Assembly (NCBI GenBank): GCA_013204105.1
Contig: JABMOM010000029.1
Location: 1-64,000, forward strand
Direction of reading: 5' to 3'
Source: Flavobacteriales bacterium
Lineage (GTDB): Bacteria > Bacteroidota > Bacteroidia > Flavobacteriales_G > Salibacteraceae
Length of the DNA: 64,000 bases
The stretch's first letter is position 1; the number at the start of each line of letters is the position of its first letter. The notes below the pieces were generated by a model. That model worked only from the letters and a program-made list of their open reading frames with translations, did no database searches and was not told the DNA's origin. The position numbers were made by a program, and so were the translations under genes. This document shows, piece by piece, positions 24,812 through 56,059 of the stretch.

Positions 24812-25723
24812 TTAGCCTTCTTTCTTATCCTCTTCTTTCTTGTCCTCTTCTTTCGCTTTTTCAGCAGTAGGAACTTCTTCCTTTGCTTCAGCAGCAGGAG
24901 CTTCTTCCTTCACCTCTTCAGCAGCAGGAGCTTCTTCCTTCACCTCTTCAGCAGCAGGAGCTTCTTCCTTCACCTCTTCAGCAGCAGGAGCTTCTTCCTT
25001 CACCTCTTCAGCCACAGGAGCTTCTTCCTTCACCTCTTCAGCCACAGGAGCTTCTTCCTTCACCTCTTCAGCAGCAGGAGCTTCTTCCTTCACCTCTTCG
25101 GCGACAGGAGCTTCTTCCTTCACCTCTTCGGCAGGAGCTTCAACTACCTCAGCTACTACTTCTGCAACTTTCTCTTCCACAGCCTCAGCAACTTCCGCTA
25201 CTGCGTCACCTGCGCTTACAACTGCTTCGGCAACAACTTCTGTTGCTTCTTCAACCGCTTCCTCAACTTCTTCCTGTACAGTCTGTGCAGCGATGCGCGC
25301 CTCATTGGCTTGCTTTTCTGCAGCAAATCTTGCTTTGCGCTGATCATCAGCTGACATAGCAAGGTGATCACGTTTCTTCTGGATATTGCCTTCCTTCTCC
25401 TCTAACCACTTATCGAATTTCGCCTTGGCTTGATCCTCAGTAAGGGCTCCTTTGGCAACACCTCTCAGTAGGTGATCCATCATGAGTACACCGCGATAAG
25501 ACAAGATTGCTCTTGCTGTATCGCTCGGTTCAGCACCTTTTTGGATCCAATCTACGCTCTTATCGAAGTCGAGATCGATGGTAGCAGGATTTGTATTGGG
25601 ATTGTAGGTTCCGATCTTCTCGATGAAACGTCCGTCTCTCTTTGATCGTTGGTCAGCTACGACGATGTGGAAGAATGGTCTTCCTTTCTTACCGTGGCGC
25701 TGAAGTCTAATACGTGTTGACAT
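24812..25723 (-). CDS. rpsP: 30S ribosomal protein S16 with a long repetitive C-terminal tail
   Basis: The first 80 residues or so are normal S16 (MSTRIRLQRHGKKGRPFFHI...). A short helical part follows (EDQAKAKFDKWLEEKEGN, then QKKRDHLAMSADDQRKARFA), then an Ala/Val/Glu-rich part and about eight copies of the ten-residue unit AEEVKEEAP(A/V), ending in a Lys/Glu end (KEEDKKEEDKKEG). Total 303 residues, against 80-90 in E. coli and often about 150-190 in Bacteroidota. The tail is strongly acidic and predicted disordered or helical. The S16 role in 30S assembly should remain. The frame is intact, so this is not a frameshift artefact within the window. Confidence 0.93.
   Translation of the reverse strand: MSTRIRLQRHGKKGRPFFHIVVADQRSKRDGRFIEKIGTYNPNTNPATIDLDFDKSVDWIQKGAEPSDTARAILSYRGVLMMDHLLRGVAKGALTEDQAKAKFDKWLEEKEGNIQKKRDHLAMSADDQRKARFAAEKQANEARIAAQTVQEEVEEAVEEATEVVAEAVVSAGDAVAEVAEAVEEKVAEVVAEVVEAPAEEVKEEAPVAEEVKEEAPAAEEVKEEAPVAEEVKEEAPVAEEVKEEAPAAEEVKEEAPAAEEVKEEAPAAEEVKEEAPAAEAKEEVPTAEKAKEEDKKEEDKKEG
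24889..25140. repeat. 30-bp tandem repeat array inside rpsP
   Basis: About eight copies of a 30-base unit (plus strand CTTCTTCCTTCACCTCTTCA plus GCAGCAGGAG) in direct tandem, encoding AEEVKEEAP(A/V) on the minus strand. Copies differ at a few positions (AGCAGCAGG, AGCCACAGG, GGCGACAGG). There are no spacers, so it is a coding minisatellite. Confidence 0.95.
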
Positions 25724-25993: not shown

Positions 25994-28900
25994 ATGGCAC
26001 GACTTCTACGCTACGCTATTGCCGCTGTTCTTTTCACCCTTGGATCCATCTTTAATGGTGCGTTCGCACAGTGTGACTCGACCTATTCAAACTTCCAGAT
26101 AGAGGAAATCTGGGAACAACAGACCTTCACACTGTGGAATAATGTGTCTGGCAATGACTACGATTGGATCATCAATTCTGGAGGCACCCCGACCAACAAC
26201 TCTGGCCCTTCAGCTGCTTATGGTGGATCCTATTACATCTACACTGAGACCTCCGGGACAGGAACCAATGAGGTAGGCATCATGGAATCCGAGTGCTTGG
26301 CATTTCCTACGAACAGTGCTCCTTACCTTTCATTCAGGTTGCACATGTACGAGAACGTGTCGGCAACCACAGCGCAGTCCATGGGCTACTTACAAGTACA
26401 AGTAAACACCAATCCGAGCGGAAACAGCTGGTCTACACTTGCAACCTACAATACAAGTTCAAATTCTTGGTTAGAAAAATTTGTTGACCTCTCGGCATAT
26501 GCCGGCTCCACCATAAAACTCAGGTTTAGAGCAGTTACAGGAACCCAAGGTGGCTTCAATCAATGGTATGCATACGGTGACAGGGCCTTGGACAACATCG
26601 TTGTTTCTACCGGCGTCAACACTACAAACGTCAGCTGCTCAGGCGGATCCAATGGTTCCGCAATAGCCGTAGGCGCCTTCAATGGTGTAGGAAGCACACT
26701 TTACACCTACCTATGGAGCACTGGAGGGACTACTCAATCCATTACTGGCTTATCTGCCGGCAGCTACGTATGCACCATCACCGACACCAGCTCCAACTCT
26801 GAAGTGGTATCCTTTAGCATTACAGAACCTACGCTTCCTTCACCTCAAAACCTTTCCGCCACATCTACTTCTATCTGTGAAACTGAGAATGAAGTGGTGA
26901 CCCTGAGCATCGATTTCGCTTCAGGCGATTACACGTATTCCACCCTGACAGGGGACTCTTCGGATTTAGGTAGTCAGAACACCGCAGGCACATCCCAAAT
27001 TTTCAACATTTTCGACGCCCCTCCCTTTGCCACTGGGGACGCTACCCTCACCATGTATTACCGCGGTGATATGGAAGCTGCCGCTGAATACGTTACCACT
27101 TACTCGGAGTACGGAACCTCGTTGGGTGCATCAACTGCTGCGAGCGGTCAATGCAGCGGCTCCTATAATTCGGTAAGTTTCACCATCGATCCGGATTCAA
27201 TCAATGATTGGGCTAGTGATGGTGTTATTTCCCTTGAAGGAATTCCAACCGGCATGACGCGTTATTGTAACGCCGGTAGTGGAAACTACTTTTCATGGAA
27301 TGCCTATTACACTTTATCATATCCCGTCGCTCAAAGCACCCCTTACTGGTTTACGAACAGTTGCGACAGTGTGATCTCTAATGCGGTCGACTCAGGATAT
27401 ACCGTCAACGTTACCCCTACGACTACAACCACGTACTATGTTCGCTTTTACGATGCAGGGTGCAGCCAATGGGGTACTTGTGATTCCGTTACCGTCACGG
27501 TGAATGGTCCTCCCTCTGTATCCATTTCACCTACCTCCCCTTACTACTGTGGAATACCTATTTCCATCACAGCGAGTGGAGCCTCATTCTACTCTTGGTC
27601 TCCCGGAACAGGCCTAAACCAAACTTCAGGACCAACCGTCATTGCAAGCCCATCTGTAACCTCCTCCTATGAGGTTGTTGGTATCGATGGGAATGGATGT
27701 ACCGACACGGCCGCATTCAGCGTAACCGTCACAACCGGGCCTAGCGCAAGCGTTACGGGTACGAATGTCTCCTGTAATGGCGGGTCAAACGGAACGGCTT
27801 CGGTTACCGCATCAGGTGGCACGAGTGCATATACCTACCTATGGTCCAATGGAAGCACAGCTACCTCATTATCAGGGTTGTCTGCAGGGACGTATACGGT
27901 GACCGTCGATGATGGCACCACTTGTAACGCGGTTCAATCCATTGTCATCACCGAACCCAACGCGATAAGCATCACTATTGCGGGAAACAACATCGGGTGT
28001 TCTGGATTCTCAACCGGTAGTGCCTTTGCCCTTGTCACAGGAGGTACTGCTTCCTACTCCTATTCTTGGAGCAACGGATCAACGAGCAACGTTGCCTTTG
28101 CTTTGGCGGCCGGAACCTATACCTTAACCGTCACCGACGCGAACAGCTGTACAGCAACACAATCGGTTACCATCACCCAACCTTCCAGTGCGCTCAGCTC
28201 GAGCATTTCGTCGACGACAAATGTCAGCTGCAACGGCGGCAATGACGGATCTGCAACCGTAACCGCGAGCGGCGGAACACCATCCTACGGTTATGCTTGG
28301 AGTTCTGGAGCGACCACAGCGACTGCCTCTAACCTTAGCGCAGGAACATACATCGTTACCGTATCCGATGCGAACGGCTGCATATCTGTAGGAGTAGCAA
28401 CCATCACCCAACCGGCAACTGCAGTTAGTGTTTCGATTGGAAGCCCCACGAATGTCACATGTAACGGTGGTAGTAATGGCAGCGCTACAGCTTCCGGCTC
28501 AGGTGGAACAGGAACCATTACCTACGCTTGGTCTTCAGGATCGACTTCTGCTACGGCGAGTAGCTTGAGTGCAGGCACCTACACGGTAACAGCTACTGAC
28601 GCCAACGGCTGCGCCGATACGGAAAGTGTAACCATCACAGAACCTACTGCAGTTACAGCAAGTCTTTCCGTCACCAATGTGCTCTGTAACGGAGGTAACA
28701 ACGGGTCCATCACGGCCACCGGATCAGGTGGAAACGGCGGTGCCTATAGCTACGTATGGAGCACTGGCGGTACTTCTGGAACAGTCTCTGGATTGTCTGC
28801 AGGAACCTACACTGTAACCATTACCGACAACGCTGGGTGTACTGGCACAGAAAGTACCACCATCACCGAACCAAGTGTTCTGATCGCTTCCACTACCCTC

Positions 28901-31900
28901 GGAAACAACGTCAGTTGCAACGGTGGCAACAATGGCTCTGCAACAGCTTCAGCGAGCGGTGGAACAACATCCTACGCTTACAATTGGTCCTCTGGATCAA
29001 CCTCAGCAACGGCCTCTTCCCTTTCGGCGGGTACCTATACGGTGACCGTAACCGACGCGAACGGTTGCACTGATACAGAAACCATCATCATCACGGAACC
29101 AGCTACGGCTGTGTCTGCTTCTATTGGGTCGCCTACGAATGTCAGCTGCAACGGAGGCAATGACGGCGCTGCAACGGCATCAGGCTCCGGAGGAACTCCG
29201 GGATATTCTTACAGTTGGTCTTCCGGTGCAACCTCGGCTGCGGCATCTTCGCTATCTGCGGGGACGTACACAGTTACGGTTACAGACGCCAACGGTTGTA
29301 CAGATACCGAGACCGTGATCATCACCGAGCCCGCAACTGCGGTAACCGCTTCGATCTCGTTGGGTAGCAACGTCAGTTGTAATGGAGGCAGCAATGGATC
29401 TGCTACTGCTTCCGCCACAGGCGGCACAGCGGGTTACTCTTATAGCTGGTCATCTGGATCCAGCACCGCTTCCGTCTCTGGTCTCGCTGCAGGAACGTAT
29501 ACCGTTACTGTCACAGATGCAAACGGTTGTACAGATGCCGAAACCATCACCATTACCGAGCCTTCCGCACTGATTGCATCCACTACCTTGGGTAGTAACG
29601 TCAGTTGTAACGGAGGAAATAACGGTTCCGCTTCAGCTTCGGCATCCGGTGGAACGCCTGGGTATTCTTACGCTTGGTCTTCTGGGTCTACGGTTGCTTC
29701 TGCATCCAGTCTATCTGCTGGCACTTATACCGTGACAATCACAGACGCCAATGGATGTACCGATACAGAGACGATCACCATTACGGAGCCTTCCGTTTTA
29801 GTGGCATCTACAACACTGGGTAACAATGTGAGTTGCAACGGTGGCAACGATGGTTCAGCCACCGCTTCTGCATCTGGCGGAACGTCTACCTACTCTTATA
29901 GCTGGTCTTCAGGATCGACTGCAGCAATAGCCTCTTCCCTTTCGGCCGGGACGTATACCGTGACCGTCACAGACGCAAATGGTTGTAGCGATACCGAAAC
30001 CATCACCATTACTGAACCTGCTACTGCCGTAACGGCCTCCATAGGATCACCTACCAACGTGAGCTGCAATGGTGGTAATGATGGGTCTGCGACAGCTTCA
30101 GGCGCAGGCGGAACGCCAGGATATTCGTACAGCTGGTCTTCCGGCGCCACCGCAGCCACAGCTACGTCACTAACTGCCGGCACGTATACAGTGACCGTAA
30201 CTGACGCGAACGGCTGTACAGACACCGAGACCGTAACCATTACCGAACCCGCAACTTCCGTCACAGCCTCCATAGGATCTCCAACCAACGTAAGTTGCAA
30301 TGGAGGAAACAATGGATCCGCAACCGCATCTGGTTCAGGCGGCACACCTGGCTATTCTTATAACTGGTCTTCAGGCGCAACGACGGCAACCGCTTCATCA
30401 CTCACAGCAGGCACATTCACGGTTACAGTTACGGATGCCAACGGATGTACCGATACAGAAACGGTAACCATTACACAGCCCAGTGTTCTAGTCGCTTCAA
30501 CAACTTTGGGCAGCAATGCAAGTTGTAATGGCGGCAACGACGGTTCCGCAACTGCTTCCGCATCTGGCGGAACCTCACCTTATGGCTACAGCTGGTCTTC
30601 TGGATCAACCGCTGCTTCTGCAACCGGTCTATCTGCTGGCACATATACGGTAACGGTAACCGATGCGAATGGCTGTGACGATACAGAGACGATCACCATC
30701 ACCGAGCCTGCCGTGCTGGTAGCATCTATAACACTCGGCAGCAACGTGAGCTGCAACGGAGGCAACGATGGTTCTGCCACCGCTTCTGCCGCTGGCGGAA
30801 CATCCCCGTACTCTTACAGCTGGTCTTCAGGATCAACTGCAGCTAGCGCGTCTTCGCTTTCGGCTGGAGCTTATACAGTTACCATTACCGACGCGAACGG
30901 ATGTACCGACACCGAGACCATCACCATCACTGAGCCAAGTACGGGCGTTACCGCTTCGATCGGATCACCTACAAATGTGAGCTGCAACGGCGGCAACGAC
31001 GGTTCTGCAACGGCTTCTGGCTCTGGCGGAACGCCTGGCTACTCCTACAGTTGGTCTTCAGGCGCAACTACTGCAGCGGCTTCTAGCCTCTCTGCCGGAA
31101 CTTATACGGTCACCGTAACAGACGCGAACGGTTGTGCTGATACCGAGACCGTAACCATTACAGAGCCAGCAACGAGTGTCACAGCTTCAATAGGATCACC
31201 TACCAACGTAAGTTGCAATGGTGGTAGCGACGGAGCGGCCACTGCTTCCGGGTCTGGCGGAACGCCGGGTTACTCCTACAACTGGTCTTCAGGCGCAACT
31301 ACAGCAACAGCTTCGTCACTGGCTGCAGGAACGTACACCGTGACCGTGACCGATGCCAACGGATGTACCGATACTGAAACCGTAACCATCACCCAACCTA
31401 GTATCTTGGTTGCCTCGACCACTTTAGGTAGCAACACGAGTTGCAATGGTGCCAATGATGGTTCTGCTTCGGCTTCTGCTTCAGGAGGAACCCCTGGTTA
31501 TTCTTACAACTGGTCTTCAGGATCAACTTCCTCTTCAGCTACAAGTCTCTCGGCTGGTACATATACCGTGACCGTTACGGATGCTAACGGATGCACCGAC
31601 ACAGAAACAATAACAATTACTGAACCTGTTGTATTAGTAGCTTCTACAACACTTGGCAGCAACGTTAGCTGCAACGGTGGCAACGATGGGTCCGCTACTG
31701 CTTCAGCATCTGGCGGAACGTCTCCATTCGGTTATAGCTGGTCTTCTGGGTCAACCACAGCAGGCGCTTCATCACTTTCGGCAGGCACTTACACGGTGAC
31801 CGTGACCGACGCAAATGGCTGCACTGACACGGAAACCATCACGATCACCGAGCCCGCCACAGGAGTTTCCGCTTCGATTGGATCGCCTACCAATGTGAGC

Positions 31901-34900
31901 TGCAATGGTGGTAGCGATGGTTCAGCCACTGCCTCTGGTACTGGTGGAACTTCCCCCTATTCCTACAGTTGGTCTTCGGGGTCCACTTCAGCGACGGCAT
32001 CGAGTCTTTCGGCGGGTATGTATACTGTGACCGTAACCGACGCGAACGGTTGCACGGATACCGAGACTGTAACGATTACCGAACCTGCAACCGCTGTTTC
32101 GGCTTCTATCGCCCTAGGCAGTAACGTCAGTTGCAACGGAGGCAGTGACGGATCTGCCACAGCCTCAGGTACTGGTGGAACACCTGGTTATACCTACAGT
32201 TGGTCATCTGGAGCAACTTCTGCAACAGCTGCAACTCTTTCCGCTGGAACATATACAGTGACAGTAACAGATGCCAACGGTTGTACAGACACGGAAAACA
32301 TCACCATCACAGAACCAAGTGTATTGATCGCCGCAACAACTTTGGGCAACAATGTCAGTTGTAACGGTGGCAATGATGGTTCAGCAAGTGCTTCTGCTTC
32401 AGGAGGTACTTCACCTTACAGCTACAGTTGGTCTTCCGGCTCGACCACGTCATCGGCCACTAGTCTTTCAGCAGGAACCTACACGGTGACTGTAACAGAT
32501 GCGAATGGTTGCACCGACATAGAAACCATTACCATTACCGAGCCTGCTGTATTAGTGGCATCGACAACACTTGGAAGCAACGTGAGCTGCAACGGCGGCA
32601 ACGACGGTTCGGCGAATGCTTCTGCCGCTGGCGGGACATCACCTTACTCCTACTCATGGTCTTCTGGATCGACCTCAGCAAATGCCACCTCTCTTTCCGC
32701 TGGAACCTACACGGTGACAGTCACTGATGCGAATGGCTGCACCGATACGGAAACCATCACCATTACAGAGCCAGCCATTCTTGTCGCTGCAATCGACTCT
32801 TCATCAAATATCTCGTGTTTTGGATTATTCGATGGGGTTGCGTACAGCAGTGCGACAGGAGGCACCTCACCTTACAGCTTCGCATGGAGTTCAGGTGCAT
32901 CTACTTCCACCGCATCAGGCCTTGGCGCAGGGACCTTTACAGTCACCGTGACCGATGCAAACGGATGTACCGATACGGAAAGCGTTACTATCTCCCAACC
33001 TACCCTCTTGGTTGCTTCAGCGAGCGTAGACAATAATGTGTCTTGCAACGGTGGCAACGATGGGCAAGCCACAGCCTCTGGGTCTGGAGGCACTCCTGGG
33101 TATAGCTATTCTTGGTCCTCTGGTGCTACGACCTCGGTCGCTTCAAATCTTTCTGCTGGCAACTACACGGTAACGATTACGGATCTGAGTGGGTGCAGTG
33201 ATACCGCAAGTGTGACCATCTCAGAGCCAACGCTGCTTGTCGCCTCAACTGCCCTTGGCAACAATGTGAGCTGCAATGGTGGTAACAATGGATCTGCAAC
33301 TGCTTCTGTCGTTGGAGGAACTTCACCTTATTCCTACAGCTGGTCTTCAGGGTCAACTTCCACTTCTGCTACAGGTCTTTCCGCTGGAACCTATACGGTA
33401 ACCATCACGGATGCCAATGGATGTACCGACACGAGCAACATTACGATAACGGAGCCTACGCTTCTTATGGCGACCGGATCAGGTGTGAATGTAAGCTGCA
33501 ATGGTGCGGCAGATGGGCAAGCATCGGTTGCTGCCTCTGGCGGCACTTCACCTTATACCTATCTCTGGTCTACCGGATCAACGGTAAGTTCCGCGACGAA
33601 TTTAGGCCCTGGAACCTATGGCGTTACTGTGACCGATGCCAACGGATGCACCGCGACCGCGTCTGTTGCCATTACTCAACCCACCGTGCTCATAGCAAGC
33701 ATTGCTCTTGACAGTAACGTTAGCTGCAATGGTGGAAACGATGGTTCGGCAACTGCATCAGCTGCTGGAGGTACTTCTGGGTACACATACGCATGGTCAT
33801 CTGGTGCTTCAAGCTCGACGGCTTCCTCCCTTGCCGCGGGCACCTATACCGTGACCATAACGGATGCAAATGGATGCACGGATACGGAAACGATTACCAT
33901 CACGGAGCCGACACAACTCTCAACCACCAGCGCTGTGGTCAACAATGTGACTTGCTACGCTGGGACAAACGGAAACGCCAGTATAAGCGCTTCGGGTGCT
34001 ACATCTCCGTACAGCTACGCTTGGTCATCAGGAGCAACAACGACGAATGCTACAAACCTTGCTGCGGGGACTTACTATGTTACCGTAACCGACGCAATGG
34101 GCTGCGAGGCCATCGACAGTGTATCGGTCACCGAGCCTGACACATTGATCGCAACAGCGAGTATGGTAAATGGTGTGAACTGCAACGGCGGCAACGATGG
34201 GTCTGTTTCTGTTTCGACAACAGGCGGTACGACCGCTTATGGCATCCTCTGGTCAACGGGTTCTACCTCCACGACCGTTACAGGATTATCGGCAGGAACG
34301 TATACAGTAACCGTCACGGACGCCAATGGCTGTTCAGACACTTCATCCGCAGTTGTCACTCAACCAGACAGTCTCCTAGCCAGCATTTCGCTGGGAAGCA
34401 ATGTGAGTTGCAACGGTGGAAACGACGGTTCGGCAACGGCCTCTGCAACTGGAGGTACTTCCGCTTATTCATTCTTATGGTCAACCGCAGCTACAAGTGC
34501 ATCAATCAGTGGATTGACAGCAGGTACCTACACGGTAACCGTTACCGATGCAAACAACTGTACAAACGTTACTTCCCTTGTGATCACTGAACCTGCCTCG
34601 CTTGCCGCTAGTGCAGTGTCTGTGAACAATGTGCTTTGCAGTGGCCAAAGTTCAGGAACGGTTGCAGGATCTGCCTTGGGCGGCACAAATCCATATTCAT
34701 TCTTATGGAGTACTTCGGATACTACAGATACGGTTTCTGGACTCGTGGCTGGTACCTATACTTTGACGATTACTGATGCCAATGGGTGCACCGACACGGC
34801 ATCGGCGACGATCATCGAGCCATCTGCGGTAAGCGCCCAAGCGATTTGGATCATGGACGCTGCATGTAATGGCAGCTCTACGGGATCTGCCTATGCTGCG

Positions 34901-37900
34901 GCCACCGGAGGAACCACCCCCTACTCTTACGCGTGGGCAACGGGAAGCACGAATGATTCGATCTTTAACCTTTCGGCCGGTACGTACACTGTGACGATTA
35001 CCGATGCCAATGGCTGTTCCGACTCGGATACGGTTTCGATCATGGAACCTGCCGCACTCACCTTGAACTTTGCCTTGGTAGATCCTTTGTGCAATGGGTC
35101 GAACGACGGTTCGATAGCCTCAATTGTTACGGGGGGAACAACACCCTACAACTACTCATGGTCAACTTCTGCAACAAGCGCTAGTCTCTCGGGACTGAGC
35201 GCTGGTTCGTATACGCTCACTGTCACCGATGCCAATGGATGTACAACGGCGCTCAACGGTCAGTTGAACAATCCAACTTCTGTCGTCGCGAGTATTACTT
35301 CTCAGAATAATTCCTGCTTCGGTGATTCAACAGGATTAGCTGTTGCAAGTGGTTCTGGTGGAGCTGGCAATTTCAGTTTCACTTGGAGCACTGGATCAAC
35401 GAATGACAGCATTGAGAATGCAGTGGCAGGAACGTACACCGTTACCGTCACTGACAGCAATGGTTGCTTCGACGCGGCCTCCGTCACATTGACGCAGCCT
35501 ACTGCTCTGGCAGCATCGATCTCATTCATAGACAGCGTTGCCTGTTTCGGTGATTCATCCGGCTTGGCAGTTGCAGCTGCTACTGGAGGTACATCTCCTT
35601 ATTCTTACAGCTGGCCAGCCTCTTGGACAAGTAGCAATGACTCCATATTGAATGTACCTGTGGGAGTGTATACCGTCACCATAACAGACGACAATGGCTG
35701 TATTGATACCGCGGTTGCCGTAATCGATCAATACCCGGCCTTGGTTTTGACGATTGATTCTTCGCAAGATGTAACTTGTTTCAACGGAATGGATGGATAT
35801 GCATCTGTCCTAGCTTCTGGTGGTGCGGGTGGATATACTTATGCTTGGCCAAACGGTTCAACATCAGCGGCCAATGATTCCTTGAGTGGAGGTGAACACT
35901 GTGTGACAGTTACAGACGCAAACGGATGTTCGGATACCGCTTGTGTGGATCTATCGGAGTTGAATCCGTTGCCGCTCGTCAACATTGGAAATGACACCGC
36001 GATTTGCGACACATTGTTCACCCTGGATGCTGGAAGTGCTGTTGGCTATAGCTGGAGTACCGGCGCAACGTCCCAGACCATCCAAATCGATTCAACCGAC
36101 GATTACGCTGTTACCATTACAAACGCCATCGGATGTCAGAACAGCGACACCATATCGGTGACCTTCAATCCATTGATTTCCTTTGATATTGTTACCGATA
36201 GTACAAGTTGCGGCGGATCCACAGGTGCCGCCTTGGTAACCAACCTCACAGGTGGCGGCGGTTACACACTTCTTTGGAGTAGTGGACAACTGAACACGCT
36301 CAACGTTAGCTCACTCACCTATGGAGCATACAGCGTGACCGTAAACGACGCGAATGACTGTTCGGCGGAACAATCGTTCTTTATCTATGACGATACCGAT
36401 CTCTCCTTTGACTTGTTCGGTACGGACGCAAGTTGCTTTGGATTTTCTGACGGTTCCGCTTGGGCTGAAGTTACTTCAGGAACTGGACCTTATACGTTCG
36501 ACTGGTCGAATGGTGCAGTGAATGACACGATCGTGAATATCCCCGCCAACACTTATGTGCTTACGGTTACGGATAGTGCTGGATGTATTCTGGAAGATTC
36601 GATTGTGATCGATCAACCTGAAAACGTACTGCTTTCTGTTGTGAGCACCGACGCGACCTGCGGCGACTCAAATGGAGTTGCCGTTGTGAATGTACTTCCT
36701 AGCGCCAACTATTCTTTTGCTTGGAATGATCCATTTGCACAAACCACAGACACTGCTTCTAACTTGTCTGCTAGCACTTACCAAGTGATTGTAACGGCTA
36801 GTAATGGATGTCAGGATTCGGCTTTCGCCATTGTGAGCAATGATGGGGCACCTTCGCTAGCCATGGCTGCCATGAACGAATCTTGTGAGGGAAGTGGCGA
36901 TGGTTACGCAGCGGTTTCGGCCTCAAGCCTCTCTCCCCTTACCTATCTCTGGAGTGATGCTTTAGGACAAACAACGGATACAGCCTTTAATATTGGATCT
37001 GGCTTGTATTTCGTCTCTGTGACTGACACGAGTGGATGCATTGCAATCGACAGTATTTCAGTGGGTGCCGATGGATTAAACCCTGTCTTTACACTTGGCA
37101 ACGACACAAGCGTGTGCGGCAGCTCCATCACCTTATACGCTCCAATGGGTATGTCTTCATACACCTGGAGCACAGGAGCAACGAGCGACTCAATTGTTGT
37201 TACTGCAACAGGTCAATACTGGGTGAATGTGACGAATGCCTCGGGATGTTCGAGTTCCGACTCCATCCAGGTCGACCTCTACAATGCAATCACATATACT
37301 TCTGCCATCAATAATTCCAGTTGTTCGCAGAATACTGGATCCATTGACATTACCATCACTGCTGGCAATGGAGGTTATACGTTCCTTTGGAATACGGGTG
37401 ACACCACCGCACTTATAACAGGACTCGGTAGCGGTACCTACGACGTAACCATAGCAGACAGCGCTGGATGCTCAATAGAAGCATCCTTCAACGTAGACAA
37501 CATCAACGCTCCTGCCGTGTCGGTAGACGTTACTGACGCGAATTGTAACGCTGCAGCGAGTGGATCTGCCATAGCTACGGTAACGAATGGAACCGCCCCA
37601 TTCTCTTATGCTTGGAGCAATGGAGGAAACGGAACCAATCAAAGTGGATTGCTGGCTGGGAATTACGACTTAACCGTGACGGACGACAGTGGTTGCGTTG
37701 TCACCGTTCCTTTCGACGTATTAGAGCCAACGGCCATTACCATATCGATCTCAGGAATTCAGCCTGATTGTGGAGACTCCAACGGAAGTGCGTTGGCTCT
37801 GGTTACGAATACCCAAGGGCCAGTAGTGAATTATCTATGGAATGATTCCGCCGCCACCCCCTTGCCTTTCGTGAACAACCTCCCTGCTGGCTACTACACG

Positions 37901-38917
37901 GTATCGATTACAGATTCTGCCGGCTGTATGGCTTCAGAGAGTATCGCCTTGAGCAATTTAGGCGCCGCATCCCTGGCTACCTTCAGTACGACAAACAATT
38001 GCTCAAACGAAAACGTCGCCTACGCATATGTAGATGCCATCGGAAGCGGTCCGTTTACGTATGCTTGGAATGATGATCTGTCACAACAGAATGACACAGC
38101 TTTCAACCTGTACAATGGCACGTACGCCATTTCAGTGACGGATACCAATGGTTGCATTGCCGTCAGCACAATAGAGGTAACTTCCATATTTACCGCACCT
38201 TCTATTAGCCTGGGCAACAACGTTACAAGCTGCATTGGCGATGGGGTGATCCTCACGCCTGGAAATGGCTTCATCACGTACTTATGGAGCACGGGGTCTA
38301 CTTCACCTTCTATTACGGTAACCACTGGTCAATCCTATTCCGTAACTGTAAGTAACACCGTAGGATGCGCTGCGTACGATACCGTGCTTGTAAACTTTGT
38401 TGCTATTCCAGTTATTGATCTAGGAAACGACACGATTGTTTGTGTGGATGACATTGTTCCCGTGGTGACCTTGGATGCCGGTGAAGGATTCAACGACTAT
38501 CTATGGTCAACCAACGACACTACGCAGACGATTGATGTATTCAGTGGAGGTCTCTACAAAGTGAGTGTAAGCGACGTACCTGGCTGCGTAGGAAGCGATC
38601 AAGTAATCGTTGCATACGACACATGCATCAATGTGACCACTGAAGATCTGGCCAAAGGCGCCAGCGCATCCTTGCGCATTTACCCGAATCCGAACAGAGG
38701 AAGGTTTGTAATCGAAATGAATCATTTTGAAGCTGACAACTACGAAGTTCATGTAATGAATGCCGCGGGCCAACATGTATTCATGACAACGGTACGCACA
38801 GGTAGCAATGGCGTTTCCATCGCCGAGATAGACTTGTCTGAGACGCCGAGAGGCATCTATCTGATGACGGTTAAGGGTTCGGGAATACGGATGGATCAAC
38901 GCGTGATCATTCAATAA
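25994..38917 (+). CDS. giant SprB-repeat surface protein with T9SS sorting domain
   Basis: 4307 residues. Signal peptide 1-25 (ending GAFAQ); a MAM/jelly-roll-like domain (about 30-205); one SprB-type module; PKD/Ig-like domains (about 290-585); then a long array of SprB repeats of about 76 residues, about 45 recognisable modules in all and the most regular between residues 589 and about 3320. Each has a core like NVSCNGGNDGSATAS, then GGTPGYSYSWSSG, GTYTVTVTDANGC and ITEP, with one Cys near each end. The last third is more diverged and mixed with Ig-like parts (GNDTAICDTLFTLDAGS). It ends in a T9SS type A tail (LRIYPNPNRG ... RMDQRVIIQ). In F. johnsoniae, SprB is a cell-surface gliding adhesin; this protein is a good candidate for a similar adhesin, but SprB repeats also occur in other surface proteins. 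Confidence 0.93.
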   Translation: MARLLRYAIAAVLFTLGSIFNGAFAQCDSTYSNFQIEEIWEQQTFTLWNNVSGNDYDWIINSGGTPTNNSGPSAAYGGSYYIYTETSGTGTNEVGIMESECLAFPTNSAPYLSFRLHMYENVSATTAQSMGYLQVQVNTNPSGNSWSTLATYNTSSNSWLEKFVDLSAYAGSTIKLRFRAVTGTQGGFNQWYAYGDRALDNIVVSTGVNTTNVSCSGGSNGSAIAVGAFNGVGSTLYTYLWSTGGTTQSITGLSAGSYVCTITDTSSNSEVVSFSITEPTLPSPQNLSATSTSICETENEVVTLSIDFASGDYTYSTLTGDSSDLGSQNTAGTSQIFNIFDAPPFATGDATLTMYYRGDMEAAAEYVTTYSEYGTSLGASTAASGQCSGSYNSVSFTIDPDSINDWASDGVISLEGIPTGMTRYCNAGSGNYFSWNAYYTLSYPVAQSTPYWFTNSCDSVISNAVDSGYTVNVTPTTTTTYYVRFYDAGCSQWGTCDSVTVTVNGPPSVSISPTSPYYCGIPISITASGASFYSWSPGTGLNQTSGPTVIASPSVTSSYEVVGIDGNGCTDTAAFSVTVTTGPSASVTGTNVSCNGGSNGTASVTASGGTSAYTYLWSNGSTATSLSGLSAGTYTVTVDDGTTCNAVQSIVITEPNAISITIAGNNIGCSGFSTGSAFALVTGGTASYSYSWSNGSTSNVAFALAAGTYTLTVTDANSCTATQSVTITQPSSALSSSISSTTNVSCNGGNDGSATVTASGGTPSYGYAWSSGATTATASNLSAGTYIVTVSDANGCISVGVATITQPATAVSVSIGSPTNVTCNGGSNGSATASGSGGTGTITYAWSSGSTSATASSLSAGTYTVTATDANGCADTESVTITEPTAVTASLSVTNVLCNGGNNGSITATGSGGNGGAYSYVWSTGGTSGTVSGLSAGTYTVTITDNAGCTGTESTTITEPSVLIASTTLGNNVSCNGGNNGSATASASGGTTSYAYNWSSGSTSATASSLSAGTYTVTVTDANGCTDTETIIITEPATAVSASIGSPTNVSCNGGNDGAATASGSGGTPGYSYSWSSGATSAAASSLSAGTYTVTVTDANGCTDTETVIITEPATAVTASISLGSNVSCNGGSNGSATASATGGTAGYSYSWSSGSSTASVSGLAAGTYTVTVTDANGCTDAETITITEPSALIASTTLGSNVSCNGGNNGSASASASGGTPGYSYAWSSGSTVASASSLSAGTYTVTITDANGCTDTETITITEPSVLVASTTLGNNVSCNGGNDGSATASASGGTSTYSYSWSSGSTAAIASSLSAGTYTVTVTDANGCSDTETITITEPATAVTASIGSPTNVSCNGGNDGSATASGAGGTPGYSYSWSSGATAATATSLTAGTYTVTVTDANGCTDTETVTITEPATSVTASIGSPTNVSCNGGNNGSATASGSGGTPGYSYNWSSGATTATASSLTAGTFTVTVTDANGCTDTETVTITQPSVLVASTTLGSNASCNGGNDGSATASASGGTSPYGYSWSSGSTAASATGLSAGTYTVTVTDANGCDDTETITITEPAVLVASITLGSNVSCNGGNDGSATASAAGGTSPYSYSWSSGSTAASASSLSAGAYTVTITDANGCTDTETITITEPSTGVTASIGSPTNVSCNGGNDGSATASGSGGTPGYSYSWSSGATTAAASSLSAGTYTVTVTDANGCADTETVTITEPATSVTASIGSPTNVSCNGGSDGAATASGSGGTPGYSYNWSSGATTATASSLAAGTYTVTVTDANGCTDTETVTITQPSILVASTTLGSNTSCNGANDGSASASASGGTPGYSYNWSSGSTSSSATSLSAGTYTVTVTDANGCTDTETITITEPVVLVASTTLGSNVSCNGGNDGSATASASGGTSPFGYSWSSGSTTAGASSLSAGTYTVTVTDANGCTDTETITITEPATGVSASIGSPTNVSCNGGSDGSATASGTGGTSPYSYSWSSGSTSATASSLSAGMYTVTVTDANGCTDTETVTITEPATAVSASIALGSNVSCNGGSDGSATASGTGGTPGYTYSWSSGATSATAATLSAGTYTVTVTDANGCTDTENITITEPSVLIAATTLGNNVSCNGGNDGSASASASGGTSPYSYSWSSGSTTSSATSLSAGTYTVTVTDANGCTDIETITITEPAVLVASTTLGSNVSCNGGNDGSANASAAGGTSPYSYSWSSGSTSANATSLSAGTYTVTVTDANGCTDTETITITEPAILVAAIDSSSNISCFGLFDGVAYSSATGGTSPYSFAWSSGASTSTASGLGAGTFTVTVTDANGCTDTESVTISQPTLLVASASVDNNVSCNGGNDGQATASGSGGTPGYSYSWSSGATTSVASNLSAGNYTVTITDLSGCSDTASVTISEPTLLVASTALGNNVSCNGGNNGSATASVVGGTSPYSYSWSSGSTSTSATGLSAGTYTVTITDANGCTDTSNITITEPTLLMATGSGVNVSCNGAADGQASVAASGGTSPYTYLWSTGSTVSSATNLGPGTYGVTVTDANGCTATASVAITQPTVLIASIALDSNVSCNGGNDGSATASAAGGTSGYTYAWSSGASSSTASSLAAGTYTVTITDANGCTDTETITITEPTQLSTTSAVVNNVTCYAGTNGNASISASGATSPYSYAWSSGATTTNATNLAAGTYYVTVTDAMGCEAIDSVSVTEPDTLIATASMVNGVNCNGGNDGSVSVSTTGGTTAYGILWSTGSTSTTVTGLSAGTYTVTVTDANGCSDTSSAVVTQPDSLLASISLGSNVSCNGGNDGSATASATGGTSAYSFLWSTAATSASISGLTAGTYTVTVTDANNCTNVTSLVITEPASLAASAVSVNNVLCSGQSSGTVAGSALGGTNPYSFLWSTSDTTDTVSGLVAGTYTLTITDANGCTDTASATIIEPSAVSAQAIWIMDAACNGSSTGSAYAAATGGTTPYSYAWATGSTNDSIFNLSAGTYTVTITDANGCSDSDTVSIMEPAALTLNFALVDPLCNGSNDGSIASIVTGGTTPYNYSWSTSATSASLSGLSAGSYTLTVTDANGCTTALNGQLNNPTSVVASITSQNNSCFGDSTGLAVASGSGGAGNFSFTWSTGSTNDSIENAVAGTYTVTVTDSNGCFDAASVTLTQPTALAASISFIDSVACFGDSSGLAVAAATGGTSPYSYSWPASWTSSNDSILNVPVGVYTVTITDDNGCIDTAVAVIDQYPALVLTIDSSQDVTCFNGMDGYASVLASGGAGGYTYAWPNGSTSAANDSLSGGEHCVTVTDANGCSDTACVDLSELNPLPLVNIGNDTAICDTLFTLDAGSAVGYSWSTGATSQTIQIDSTDDYAVTITNAIGCQNSDTISVTFNPLISFDIVTDSTSCGGSTGAALVTNLTGGGGYTLLWSSGQLNTLNVSSLTYGAYSVTVNDANDCSAEQSFFIYDDTDLSFDLFGTDASCFGFSDGSAWAEVTSGTGPYTFDWSNGAVNDTIVNIPANTYVLTVTDSAGCILEDSIVIDQPENVLLSVVSTDATCGDSNGVAVVNVLPSANYSFAWNDPFAQTTDTASNLSASTYQVIVTASNGCQDSAFAIVSNDGAPSLAMAAMNESCEGSGDGYAAVSASSLSPLTYLWSDALGQTTDTAFNIGSGLYFVSVTDTSGCIAIDSISVGADGLNPVFTLGNDTSVCGSSITLYAPMGMSSYTWSTGATSDSIVVTATGQYWVNVTNASGCSSSDSIQVDLYNAITYTSAINNSSCSQNTGSIDITITAGNGGYTFLWNTGDTTALITGLGSGTYDVTIADSAGCSIEASFNVDNINAPAVSVDVTDANCNAAASGSAIATVTNGTAPFSYAWSNGGNGTNQSGLLAGNYDLTVTDDSGCVVTVPFDVLEPTAITISISGIQPDCGDSNGSALALVTNTQGPVVNYLWNDSAATPLPFVNNLPAGYYTVSITDSAGCMASESIALSNLGAASLATFSTTNNCSNENVAYAYVDAIGSGPFTYAWNDDLSQQNDTAFNLYNGTYAISVTDTNGCIAVSTIEVTSIFTAPSISLGNNVTSCIGDGVILTPGNGFITYLWSTGSTSPSITVTTGQSYSVTVSNTVGCAAYDTVLVNFVAIPVIDLGNDTIVCVDDIVPVVTLDAGEGFNDYLWSTNDTTQTIDVFSGGLYKVSVSDVPGCVGSDQVIVAYDTCINVTTEDLAKGASASLRIYPNPNRGRFVIEMNHFEADNYEVHVMNAAGQHVFMTTVRTGSNGVSIAEIDLSETPRGIYLMTVKGSGIRMDQRVIIQ
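29102..32773 (+). repeat. four tandem 918-bp blocks inside the giant gene
   Basis: Sixteen repeat modules (residues 1037-2260) fall into four blocks starting at 29102, 30020, 30938 and 31856, each exactly 918 bp (306 residues). Every block has the order A-A-B-B. A modules (77 residues) begin like ATAVTASIGSPTNVSC; B modules (76 residues) begin like SVLVASTTLGSNVSC. The second A of blocks 1 and 4 is a variant (ASISLGSN, ASIALGSN). In blocks 2 and 3 the second A module ends in TITQP instead of TITEP. Confidence 0.9.
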
Positions 38918-51757: not shown

Positions 51758-54700
51758 ATGTACCTGATATTCGATACCGAAACCACTGGCCGCATTGAGA
51801 ATTGGAAGGCTCCTGTCAGTGAATTCGAGTCTTTTCCCCGCGTCGTCCAACTCGCATGGCAGCTCCACGATTACAAAGGAGAGCTGATCGATGTCAAAAA
51901 CTACATCATCAAGCCGGATGGGTATACCATCCCATTCAACGCGGAAAAGATCCACGGGATCAGCACGGAACGCGCCCAAAAAATCGGTGTGCCCATCGAG
52001 TTCGTCATGGACGAATTCAAGAAGGCGCTGGCAGATACAGATTTTGCCATAGGTCACAACATTGAATTCGATACGAAGGTCCTGGGGGCTGAATACGCTC
52101 GGGCAAGGCGTGACGATGGCCTCATGGAGAAGCGGACGCTGGACACCATGCAGCTCAGCACCAATTACTGCCAACTCCCTGGGGGACGTGGGAAAGGGTT
52201 CAAATACCCGACCCTGTCAGAACTCAACCAAAAGCTGTTTGGTGAAGCAGTGGACAATGCACACAATGCCTCTGCCGACGTGGAGGCCACCACCCGGTGC
52301 TTCCTCGAATTGATTCGCGTTGGTGTCATTGGCATTAAGGAACTAGAATCGAACAAGGAGTACATCGACAAATTCAAAGAGCACAATCCATCTACGATCC
52401 AACTGATTGGACTAAACATTGCGCCCTACAAGCCGGACGACCTGGTTGAAACAGAAGAGCCGGAGAAAGCGGCTAATGCTCCTTCTAAAACGGCACTGAA
52501 AGAAAACGAGCAGTTGCTGAGCGACTACCCTTTCGTTCACCTGCACAACCACACGCAGTTTTCCATCCTGCAATCAACTTCGGCTGTCAAGTCCATCGTG
52601 CGGCAAGCAGCTGCATTTGAGATGCCAGCCATTGCCATCACGGACCTTGGAAACATGATGGGCGTGTTCCACTTCGTGAAAGAATGCGAAATGAACGGCA
52701 TTAAGGCAATCGTCGGTTGTGAGTTCTTTGTCGCCGCAGAATACAAGCGACATCAGTTCACCAAGGACGATCCAGACCGCCGATTCAGGCAAGTGCTCAT
52801 CGCGAAGAATGAGAACGGCTACCACAACCTTTCCAAGCTCTGTTCGGTCGGATTCATCGACGGCTTCTACGCGGGTCTCCCGCGCGTTGGGCGCGAGGTG
52901 ATTGTGGAATTCAAAGAAGACCTCATCTGCACCACCGGCGGATTAGGAGGTGAGATTCCGAATTTGATCCTCAACATTGGCGAACAACAAGCCGAAGAAG
53001 CATTCAACTATTGGCACACCTTGTTCGGAGACGATTTCTATGTTCAATTGATGCGCCATGACCTGGAAGAGGAAGTCCGTGTGAACGAAGTGCTCCTGCG
53101 CTTTTGTGCAAAGTATGGTGTGAAGTACTTCGCCGCGAATGATGTCTATTACCAGTCCAAGGAAGATGCAAATGCACATGATATCCTACTCTGCGTAAAG
53201 GATGGCGTGCAGCAGGATATGCCGATAGGACGAGGACGCGGTTTCCGTTTCGGTATGCCGAACCAGGAATTCTATTTCAAGTCTCAAAAGGAGATGAAGG
53301 AAAAATTCAAGGACCTTCCGGATGCCATCACCACGGTATCTGAGATCATCGACAAAGTGGAGGAATACAAACTCGGTCGCGACATCCTGCTTCCCAAGTT
53401 TGACATTCCCGAAGAATTTGAAGATGAGAATGCATTCCTAGCTCACCTCACTTACGAAGGGGCCAAAAAGAAATACGGCGAAATCACGGACGAGATCAAG
53501 GATCGACTCGATTTTGAACTCAAGGTGATCAAGGACATGGGCTTCCCGGGTTACTTCTTGATTGTACAAGACTTCACCACTGAGGCTAGAAAACTAGGGG
53601 TATGGGTAGGTCCGGGACGAGGATCCGCGGCCGGATCAGCTGTCGCATTTTCTGTTGGCATTACGAACATCGACCCGATCAAGTACAAGCTGCTGTTTGA
53701 GCGTTTCTTGAATCCGGAGCGTGTAACGATGCCCGATATCGATATTGACTTCGACGACGAGGGCCGGGATCGCATCATCGACTACGTGGTCAAGAAATAT
53801 GGCCAGACCCAAGTGGCACAGATCATTACCTACGGCACCATGGCGGCTAAGTCGAGCATTCGAGATGTTGCGCGCGTGTTGGACCTGCCGCTGGGCGACG
53901 CGGACCGCATTGCCAAATTAGTTCCAGACTTGAAGAAGTTCAAGCACATCTTCGGTCGAGCGAAAGAAGACTTGAAGAAGGACTTCAACGGTGATGACCT
54001 CACCAACGTCCAACAACTCATCGCGATCAGTGAGCAAGAAAATGAGGAAGGCAGGATTCTGAATCAAGCCCGGAAACTAGAGGGTTCGGTACGTAATACA
54101 GGTATCCACGCCTGCGGAGTCATCATCACACCCCAAGACATTCGAGAATTCATACCTGTTGCCACCGCGAAGGATTCTGACCTACTGCTTACCCAGTTTG
54201 ACAACAGCGTGGTGGAAAGCGCAGGCCTGCTCAAAATGGACTTCCTCGGCTTGAAAACCTTGACCGTGATGAAGGATGCGATCAAGTTGGCCAAGCAGCG
54301 GCATAACGTCGACATCGATCCCGACACGATCCCGTTGGACGATCCGAAGACCTTTGAGTTGTACCAGCGGGGTGAGACCAACGGAACTTTCCAGTTTGAA
54401 TCCGTTGGAATGCAGAAAAACCTGCGATTGCTGAAACCAACAGGCATTGAAGACCTCATTGCAATGAACGCCCTGTATCGTCCTGGTCCATTGCAGTTCA
54501 TTGATTTGTTCATCAATCGAAAGCACGGCCGTGAGAAAGTGGAGTACCCCCACGAAAAATTGGAGCCTATCCTGAAGGATACATATGGGATCATGGTCTA
54601 CCAAGAGCAGATCATGCAGACAGCTCAAATCTTAGCGGGCTACTCACTAGGTACTGCAGACATCCTTCGTCGGGCCATGGGTAAGAAGAAGATGGATGTC

Positions 54701-56059
54701 ATGGAAGAACAGCGCGTAATCTTCCGCGACGGATGTGCCAAGCATAATGACATCGATGGAGAGACGGCCGATAAGATCTTCGACGTAATGATGAAGTTTG
54801 CCGAGTACGGATTCAATCGTTCCCACTCGGCCGCGTATAGTGTGGTGGCATTTCAGACAGCGTACCTCAAGGCAAACTACCCTGCCGAATACATGGCTTC
54901 TGTGCTCACGCACAACATGGGCGACATCAAGAAGGTCACCTTCTTTATGGAAGAATGCAAGCGCATGGGTATTCCTGTATTAGGGCCAGATGTCAACGAG
55001 AGTGCTTACAAGTTTGCGGTCAACAGCCAAGGGGAGATTCGTTTTGGTATGGGCGCCATCAAAGGTGTAGGAGAGGCAGCTGTAGAGGCCATTGTGGCAG
55101 AACAGCTTGAAAATGGTCCTTATCGTTCCATTTTCGACTTTGCTTCCAGGTTAGACTTGCGTTCGGTGAATAAGAAAAATTTTGAAGGTCTTGCCATTGC
55201 TGGCTCGTTTGATTGTTTCCAAGGCGTACATCGCGCGCAATATTTCGCCGAAGATGAGAAGGGTTCTACCTTGATCGAAAAGGCGGTTCGCTATGGAAAT
55301 GCCTTTCAGGAAGCAAAGAACTCTTCCCAGGCTTCGCTCTTTGGTGATACGGAAGACGCCGAAATTCCAGAGCCGTCAATACCCGAAGCACCCGAGTGGA
55401 CCACCTTGGATCAGCTCAATCGTGAAAAAGAGGTGGTCGGCGTTTATATCTCAGGCCATCCACTGGATGATTTTCGTTTTGAACAGGAACAATTTGCAAA
55501 TGCAGCGACGGTGGATCTTCATGACATTGAAGCCATGAAGCAACGCCGTGATATCAAGGTTGCAGGAATCATCACAAAGGCTGAACACCTCACCTCCAAG
55601 ACCGGTAATCCCTATGGGAAGTTCACGCTTGAAGATTATGAGGGAACCCACGAATTCATGTTGTTCAAGGACGATTACATCCGATTCAAGAACTATCTGA
55701 CGGAAAACTGGTTTGTACTGGTCAGCGTCGGCATTCAGAGTTGGTTCAACAAAAGGGAACAGCGCGAAACTTCAAGGCTTTCGGTCACCAAGATAGATTT
55801 GCTGGCAGAATTGCGAGAGAAGATGGTGAAACAAGTGGTCTTGGATGTGGAGGTACAGTCGATCTCCGACAAGTTGATCGACCGAATCAAAGGAATGTGC
55901 TCTAAAAACAAGGGTAGCATTCCAATCCAAATCAACGTGCACGACAACGGAACCATCATTGAAATGCCCAGCAGATCTATGAGGGTCAACTTGACGCGCG
56001 AAGTGACAGAACAACTTGAATCCTTGGAAAATATCATCTGGAGCATCAAAAAGGCATGA
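51758..56059 (+). CDS. dnaE: DNA polymerase III alpha subunit with N-terminal proofreading exonuclease
   Basis: 1433 residues. The N-terminal 220 are a DnaQ-like DEDDh exonuclease: FDTETTG (D6, E8), GHNIEFD and HNASADVEATTR. A PHP domain follows (FVHLHNHTQFSILQ, from about residue 260), then the polymerase core with catalytic aspartates in PDIDIDFDDEGRD (about 659-671), then a helix-hairpin-helix and an OB-fold (IKVAGIITKAEHLT) near the end. It is a DnaE rather than a PolC: the exonuclease sits before the PHP domain and is not inserted in it. Fused exonucleases are known in flavobacterial DnaE. A near-consensus box TAATTTTA (51717-51724) precedes the gene. Confidence 0.95.
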   Translation: MYLIFDTETTGRIENWKAPVSEFESFPRVVQLAWQLHDYKGELIDVKNYIIKPDGYTIPFNAEKIHGISTERAQKIGVPIEFVMDEFKKALADTDFAIGHNIEFDTKVLGAEYARARRDDGLMEKRTLDTMQLSTNYCQLPGGRGKGFKYPTLSELNQKLFGEAVDNAHNASADVEATTRCFLELIRVGVIGIKELESNKEYIDKFKEHNPSTIQLIGLNIAPYKPDDLVETEEPEKAANAPSKTALKENEQLLSDYPFVHLHNHTQFSILQSTSAVKSIVRQAAAFEMPAIAITDLGNMMGVFHFVKECEMNGIKAIVGCEFFVAAEYKRHQFTKDDPDRRFRQVLIAKNENGYHNLSKLCSVGFIDGFYAGLPRVGREVIVEFKEDLICTTGGLGGEIPNLILNIGEQQAEEAFNYWHTLFGDDFYVQLMRHDLEEEVRVNEVLLRFCAKYGVKYFAANDVYYQSKEDANAHDILLCVKDGVQQDMPIGRGRGFRFGMPNQEFYFKSQKEMKEKFKDLPDAITTVSEIIDKVEEYKLGRDILLPKFDIPEEFEDENAFLAHLTYEGAKKKYGEITDEIKDRLDFELKVIKDMGFPGYFLIVQDFTTEARKLGVWVGPGRGSAAGSAVAFSVGITNIDPIKYKLLFERFLNPERVTMPDIDIDFDDEGRDRIIDYVVKKYGQTQVAQIITYGTMAAKSSIRDVARVLDLPLGDADRIAKLVPDLKKFKHIFGRAKEDLKKDFNGDDLTNVQQLIAISEQENEEGRILNQARKLEGSVRNTGIHACGVIITPQDIREFIPVATAKDSDLLLTQFDNSVVESAGLLKMDFLGLKTLTVMKDAIKLAKQRHNVDIDPDTIPLDDPKTFELYQRGETNGTFQFESVGMQKNLRLLKPTGIEDLIAMNALYRPGPLQFIDLFINRKHGREKVEYPHEKLEPILKDTYGIMVYQEQIMQTAQILAGYSLGTADILRRAMGKKKMDVMEEQRVIFRDGCAKHNDIDGETADKIFDVMMKFAEYGFNRSHSAAYSVVAFQTAYLKANYPAEYMASVLTHNMGDIKKVTFFMEECKRMGIPVLGPDVNESAYKFAVNSQGEIRFGMGAIKGVGEAAVEAIVAEQLENGPYRSIFDFASRLDLRSVNKKNFEGLAIAGSFDCFQGVHRAQYFAEDEKGSTLIEKAVRYGNAFQEAKNSSQASLFGDTEDAEIPEPSIPEAPEWTTLDQLNREKEVVGVYISGHPLDDFRFEQEQFANAATVDLHDIEAMKQRRDIKVAGIITKAEHLTSKTGNPYGKFTLEDYEGTHEFMLFKDDYIRFKNYLTENWFVLVSVGIQSWFNKREQRETSRLSVTKIDLLAELREKMVKQVVLDVEVQSISDKLIDRIKGMCSKNKGSIPIQINVHDNGTIIEMPSRSMRVNLTREVTEQLESLENIIWSIKKA

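What the first reader, a model, noticed from the sequence alone, without database searches (positions are those of the whole stretch)
29102..32773. Exact 918-bp higher-order period in the giant SprB-repeat gene
Sixteen consecutive repeat modules are not a simple tandem array: they form four blocks of exactly 918 bp, each with order A-A-B-B (77+77+76+76 residues). The block boundaries at 29102, 30020, 30938, 31856 and 32774 were located from the ORF. This suggests that the array grew by duplication of a four-module block, so the functional or structural unit may be about 306 residues. Blocks 1 and 4 share a variant second A module, while blocks 2 and 3 share another (ending TITQP), which suggests a nested order of duplication.
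Basis: seen in the sequence. Interest (0 to 1): 0.75.

Follow-up and report, generated by a model that had tools for sequence, protein, structure and literature searches.

The report
Four-module super-repeat in giant adhesin
A giant bacterial surface protein is built from about 50 similar beads, and its middle part grows, shrinks and renews itself in sets of four beads; the same habit is seen in its relatives, much as in the muscle protein titin.

Summary
29102-32773 is four tandem blocks of exactly 918 bp (77+77+76+76 aa) inside one 4307-aa ORF. Blocks are 72-76% identical, and position in the block predicts module similarity, at synonymous codons too.

Corrections: the array really starts one module earlier (28874; core = 4n+1 modules), so the block phase is arbitrary. 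The second "A" of blocks 1 and 4 does not group with the A modules, and nested duplication is not supported.

Homologues settle the main point. The core lies between five fixed modules and a fixed right flank, and holds 17, 17, 13 and 5 modules in four intact orthologues (n=4,4,3,1). Three less secure orthologues fit n=3,3,5. In a sister species with the same length (4307 aa, no indels), blocks 2 and 3 are 99.5% identical: a recent 918-bp-register copy. Within the family, 10 of 11 ORFs with recent repeats show a four-module step (906-936 bp), in at least three kinds of SprB-repeat gene. Elsewhere in the class steps of 1, 3 or 5 modules occur, so four is clade-typical, not universal.

The protein is a T9SS type-A-exported, MAM-tipped rod, not the gliding adhesin SprB itself. 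Best reading: a titin-like super-repeat in a bacterial adhesin, maintained by in-register recombination.

The parts
25994..38917 (+). giant SprB-repeat gene ('gene 1'), 4307 aa
   Evidence: single ORF; 38 PF13573 stretches, 1048 bits
26114..26548 (+). MAM domain at the N-terminus (likely adhesive tip)
   Evidence: PF00629, 26.8 bits against cut-off 26.4; orthologues G011 and G015 score 81 and 69 bits with two copies
27734..28873 (+). five fixed left SprB modules (F0-F4), same number in orthologues
   Evidence: module spacing and best-hit mapping; start of F0 approximate
28874..29101 (+). module m-1, B2 type: the '+1' of the 4n+1 core and true left end of the repetitive core
   Evidence: falls in the B2 clade, 96/91; lag-4 nt identity rises from here (index 5)
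29102..30019 (+). block 1 (A1 A2* B1 B2), 918 bp
30020..30937 (+). block 2 (A1 A2 B1 B2), 918 bp
30938..31855 (+). block 3 (A1 A2 B1 B2), 918 bp; nearest relative of both copied blocks of the sister species
31856..32773 (+). block 4 (A1 A2* B1 B2), 918 bp
32774..38677 (+). fixed right flank: single-copy diverged SprB modules from R1 (32774-33001) on, then further repeats up to the sorting domain
   Evidence: same number of modules between R1 and the 78-69 spacing anchor in own, G009, G007 and G011
38678..38914 (+). T9SS type A C-terminal sorting domain
   Evidence: TIGR04183, 151.6 bits; PF18962, 106 bits

Best explanation
The core of this giant adhesin is a super-repeat: tandem copies of a four-module unit (about 306 aa, 918 bp) set between fixed, single-copy modules. 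SHOWN: the unit, its slot-specific sequence, its presence before the species split, copy-number differences of whole units among orthologues, and a recent in-register copy of one unit over its neighbour in the sister species. INFERRED: the engine is homologous recombination (unequal exchange, or gene conversion) between blocks. Four diverged slots make the in-register block the best-matching partner, so exchanges add, remove or overwrite four modules at a time. Slot identity lies mainly in the first 12 residues of each module, at the junction with the previous module, so a whole-unit exchange leaves every junction matched, which selection would favour. The product is a surface rod exported by the type 9 secretion system with a MAM tip; adding or removing a unit changes rod length without altering tip, base or junction types.
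For: Exact 4 x 918 bp. Slot predicts similarity including at synonymous codons and clade (4 changes against shuffled mean 9.4). Sister orthologue of identical length without indels; its blocks 2 and 3 are 99.5% identical, with exact lag-918 runs of 890 and 394 bp spanning b1B2 to b4A1, while modules outside that tract pair across species as orthologues with starred support. Core = 4n+1 modules: own 17, G009 17, G007 13, G011 5; less secure G003 13, G015 13, G004 21. Ten of eleven ORFs with recent repeats in the family have a main step of about four modules: 906, 912, 915, 918, 924 or 936 bp. 10 of 15 slot-discriminating columns are among the first 12 residues. Five-module model: Ig-like beta modules, mean pLDDT 97.3, pTM 0.74.
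Against: Gene 2 arrays have 25, 24 and 21 modules between homologous ends, so single-module changes do occur there. Other class members show steps of 1, 3 or 5 modules. In the window's own gene the blocks are old: same-slot synonymous codon identity 0.42 against 0.31 expected from codon usage. In G011 a lag-3 match also appears. G003 and G004 orthologues are frame-broken and one G003 module was inferred from a double spacing; R1 is not recognisable in G015 and G004, so their core counts assume a constant right flank.
Confidence: 0.82

Rival explanations
1. Recombination inertia only: four is a historical accident. One ancestral duplication of four modules created the register, and homologous recombination has followed it since, with no structural or functional meaning of four.
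For: The register is old: G015, another genus, keeps 13 core modules with 77-aa spacings four modules apart at only 55-62% lag-4 nt identity. Genes 1 and 2 could be paralogues sharing one origin. Outside the family the step is often not four.
Against: Lag-4 signals also occur in arrays of G025, G168, G153 and G045, three of them in other families, and four is the commonest best lag (12 of 26 arrays with signal, not independent of one another).
Confidence: 0.5
2. Structural unit: successive Ig-like modules rotate by about a quarter turn, so four modules complete one turn and whole-unit changes keep tip and base in phase.
For: Step is four modules although unit length varies from 906 to 936 bp, so module number rather than DNA length is kept; slot differences lie at the junctions.
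Against: Steps of 3 and 5 in other lineages and a one-module difference in gene 2.
Confidence: 0.22
3. Assembly artefact: the number or order of blocks is wrong.
For: Other SprB genes of this genome do end at contig edges (C40, C6, C44).
Against: No exact repeat of 30 bp or more in the own array, and an independent assembly of the sister species gives the same length.
Confidence: 0.02
4. Chance similarity of generic modules: A and B alternate without block history.
For: All modules are alike (66-94% aa identity within the 16) and aa-level support for A1 versus A2 alone is weak (0.14 of splits as good).
Against: Synonymous codons and trees carry the position signal; copy-number steps and the fresh sister copy are independent of it.
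Confidence: 0.02

Closest known systems
Titin A-band super-repeats (7- and 11-domain; PMC10665226)
   Same: Tandem Ig-like beta domains in which domains at the same position of a super-repeat resemble each other most, linker types are position-specific, duplication is by whole super-repeat, and central copies are most alike.
   Different: Bacterial, secreted, a single module family, unit of four; no known partner filament whose period it would match. Analogy, not homology.
SprB of Flavobacterium johnsoniae (gliding adhesin)
   Same: Very large T9SS-exported surface protein with SprB repeats (PF13573).
   Different: Here a type A sorting domain (TIGR04183) rather than the type B route of SprB (PMC12635249), no spr neighbours found among the genes scanned, and a MAM N-terminus.
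GhpA, grappling hook protein A of Aureispira (PDB 9flp-9fly, 9g8b)
   Same: Best structural match of the five-module model (Foldseek E 3e-14, TM 0.51 on the query) and weak sequence match to 9flp (E 2e-4); a giant Bacteroidota protein of tandem Ig-like domains.
   Different: 22% identity, TM only about 0.5; oligomer formation and hook function cannot be inferred for this gene.

Membership tests
SprB-repeat protein (PF13573) | repeats above the curated cut-off | tested here: met
   38 stretches, 1048 bits, cut-off 28
SprB gliding adhesin | type B T9SS C-terminal signal | tested here: not met
   type A domain found instead, TIGR04183 151.6 bits
SprB gliding adhesin | linked sprC/sprD/sprF genes | tested here: inconclusive
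   scanned neighbours are S16, RimM, an ABC transporter, TamB and TsaD; not every ORF of the window was scanned
T9SS type A substrate | C-terminal sorting domain at the extreme C-terminus, with an N-terminal signal peptide | tested here: met
   residues 4229-4307 of 4307; hydrophobic start MARLLRYAIAAVLFTLG by eye, no signal peptide predictor run
titin-like super-repeat (as an organisation, not a homologous family) | position in the unit predicts module similarity | tested here: met
titin-like super-repeat (as an organisation, not a homologous family) | copy number changes by whole units | tested here: met
   gene 1: n=1,3,4,4, with 3,3,5 less secure; exception noted in gene 2
titin-like super-repeat (as an organisation, not a homologous family) | unit matches the period of a binding partner | not testable with these tools
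   no partner known
GhpA grappling hook | oligomeric fibre of the whole protein | not testable with these tools
   only fold similarity of five modules

The most novel reading that the evidence does not exclude
Four SprB modules form one structural and functional unit of a superhelical adhesin rod, so SprB-repeat adhesins of this family are selected to change length only by whole four-module turns, in several genes and species independently.
Probability: 0.2. Interest if true: 0.72.

Novelty: new variant of a known kind. Interest (0 to 1): 0.52.

Why it matters
Arrays of identical repeats in bacterial adhesins are common, but an ordered super-repeat with fixed flanks, conserved phase and whole-unit turnover is better known from muscle giants. 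It offers a natural series (n = 1, 3, 4 and probably 5 units) for measuring how adhesin length and module order affect function, and a sequence record of in-register recombination caught both fresh (sister) and old (window). No paper describing it for SprB repeats was found in the open library searched, which is not proof that none exists.

Tried and rejected
Assembly collapse: rejected. Nested duplication from the shared A2 variants: not supported by trees. A universal period of four for all SprB arrays: rejected by a class-wide survey (lag 5 in L055, lag 3 in L041, single-module steps in L064 and L071). An absolute multiple-of-four rule: fails in gene 2 (25, 24 and 21 modules). Twist per module from the predicted model: could not be measured, since model coordinates are not exported. 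The genome-contig scan by the N-terminus gave only one close relative. Pfam hits to BiPBP_C, K319L-like_PKD and TcfC inside the repeats have no stretch that passes on its own, so they were taken as cross-hits of related beta-sandwich profiles. Literature searches for SprB higher-order repeats found nothing relevant.

Full report
WHAT IS THERE. The ORF 25994-38917 (+, 4307 aa) encodes a signal-like N-terminus, a MAM domain, a stretch of about 300 aa without recognised domains, about 49 SprB-type modules and a T9SS type A sorting domain. The neighbours are rpsP/rimM on one side and tamB/tsaD on the other; a TamB-like gene is convergent downstream in the sister too (by reading the sequence).

THE OBSERVATION. 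Modules 29102-32773 form 4 x 918 bp. Blocks are 72-76% identical. The block signal is not only protein-level selection: for modules of one class, those in the same slot share more synonymous codons (mean 0.42) than those in other slots (0.345), against 0.314 expected from codon usage. These low values also say that the blocks of this genome are old. On trees the position label is nearly perfectly clustered. The A2 slot is the exception: b2A2 and b3A2 join the A1 modules, b1A2 and b4A2 do not. Their start (ATAV-ASI-LGSN) resembles the 77-aa module at the same slot of G007 and G011 (ATAVTAAIALGNN), so I read it as ancestral and the GSPTN type in blocks 2 and 3 as derived. Module 28874-29101 belongs to the B2 clade, so the core has 17 = 4x4+1 modules and the block phase is a convention.

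THE SISTER SPECIES. Outside blocks 2 and 3, modules m-1, b1A1, b1A2, b1B1, b4A2, b4B1 and b4B2 pair with their window counterparts with strong support: the four-block layout predates the split. From b1B2 to b4A1 the sister is homogenised in register 918: exact runs of 890, 394 and 37 bp, blocks 2 and 3 99.5% identical. Its b2B1 and b3B1 group with the window's b3B1 (98/95), and at block level both are nearer to the window's block 3 (0.79) than to its block 2 (0.76). So the sister's block 2 has been replaced by a copy of block 3, with no net change in number. Whether this was conversion or a gain plus a loss cannot be told.

MORE DISTANT ORTHOLOGUES. Left modules F0-F4 and the right flank from R1 to the 78-69 spacing anchor keep the same number in own, G009, G007 and G011; only the core between them varies: 17, 17, 13 and 5 modules, i.e. 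4n+1 with n=4, 4, 3, 1 (labels printed are shifted by one module). G015 (another genus) and G003 fit n=3 and G004 fits n=5, with caveats: G003 and G004 are frame-broken in these assemblies, one G003 module is inferred from a double spacing, and R1 is not recognisable in G015 and G004, so a constant right flank is assumed. N-terminal identities put own, G009 and G004 on one side and G011, G007 and G003 on the other, so at least three changes are needed, all multiples of four; three random changes would do that about once in 64.

OTHER GENES. In a second SprB gene of the genus, species-specific four-module units are 98-100% identical (G009 924 bp; G004 906 bp). Among the family's ORFs with recent repeats (about 90% over 180 bp), 10 of 11 have a main step of about four modules (L021, L022 twice, L024, L025, L031, L032, L033, L040, L050), plus L023, which shows both four and three; the clear exception is L041 with three. 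To be exact: 12 ORFs of the family are listed, 10 of which show four only, one four and three, one three. The count of 10 of 11 leaves out the ambiguous L023. Two of the ten are pieces of one frame-broken gene. Outside the family, steps near 1 and 3 modules dominate and one array has a clean five-module period (L055). A survey of class arrays gives best lags 4:12, 5:4, 3:4, 2:2, 6:2, 7:1, 8:1, not independent because orthologues are included. Gene 2 also shows that non-multiples of four happen (25, 24, 21 modules).

MECHANISM. AlphaFold2 on five modules with 114 aligned window and locus segments gives Ig-like beta modules at pLDDT 97; the nearest solved structures are fragments of the grappling hook protein GhpA. 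Slot-discriminating columns cluster at the start of the module (columns 1-5 and 8-12), i.e. at the junction with the preceding module. I therefore favour in-register homologous recombination between whole blocks, with junction compatibility as the selective filter. Shown: the pattern and its products. Inferred: the recombination route, the selective filter, and the role of the rod as adhesin stalk. The reason for four, rather than another number, remains open between inertia (0.5) and structure (0.22).

STATUS. It works like a titin super-repeat but is not related to titin; it is an SprB-repeat protein but not SprB, since the type B C-terminal signal was tested and not met. Survivorship should be kept in mind: this gene assembled well because its blocks are diverged, whereas another SprB gene of this genome (C40) starts at a contig edge inside modules resembling the sister's four-module unit.

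Noticed in passing
window 24812-25723 (-), repeat 24846-25141: Ribosomal protein S16 ORF of 303 aa: the S16 domain covers residues 9-67 and the rest is a long extension with a 30-bp tandem repeat (10 copies).
   Followed up: no
window 51758-56059 (+): DNA polymerase III alpha ORF of 1433 aa with an epsilon-like (DnaQ-type) exonuclease region at residues 2-187 before the DnaE part (258-1423).
   Followed up: no
L042 (G000:C40) 1-1500: A second SprB-repeat gene of the window's genome is cut by the contig edge within modules that resemble the sister's near-identical four-module repeats; its true copy number is unknown.
   Followed up: partly
L055 (G045:C51): An SprB-type array with a clean five-module period (aa identity 0.80 at lag 5 against about 0.43 at lags 1-4).
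   Followed up: no
L022 (G004) and L025 (G003): Orthologues broken by several frame changes within the repeats; assembly error or decay not distinguished.
   Followed up: no
L023, L024, L025, L026 N-termini: These orthologues carry two MAM-like domains where the window gene, G009 and G004 appear to have one.
   Followed up: partly
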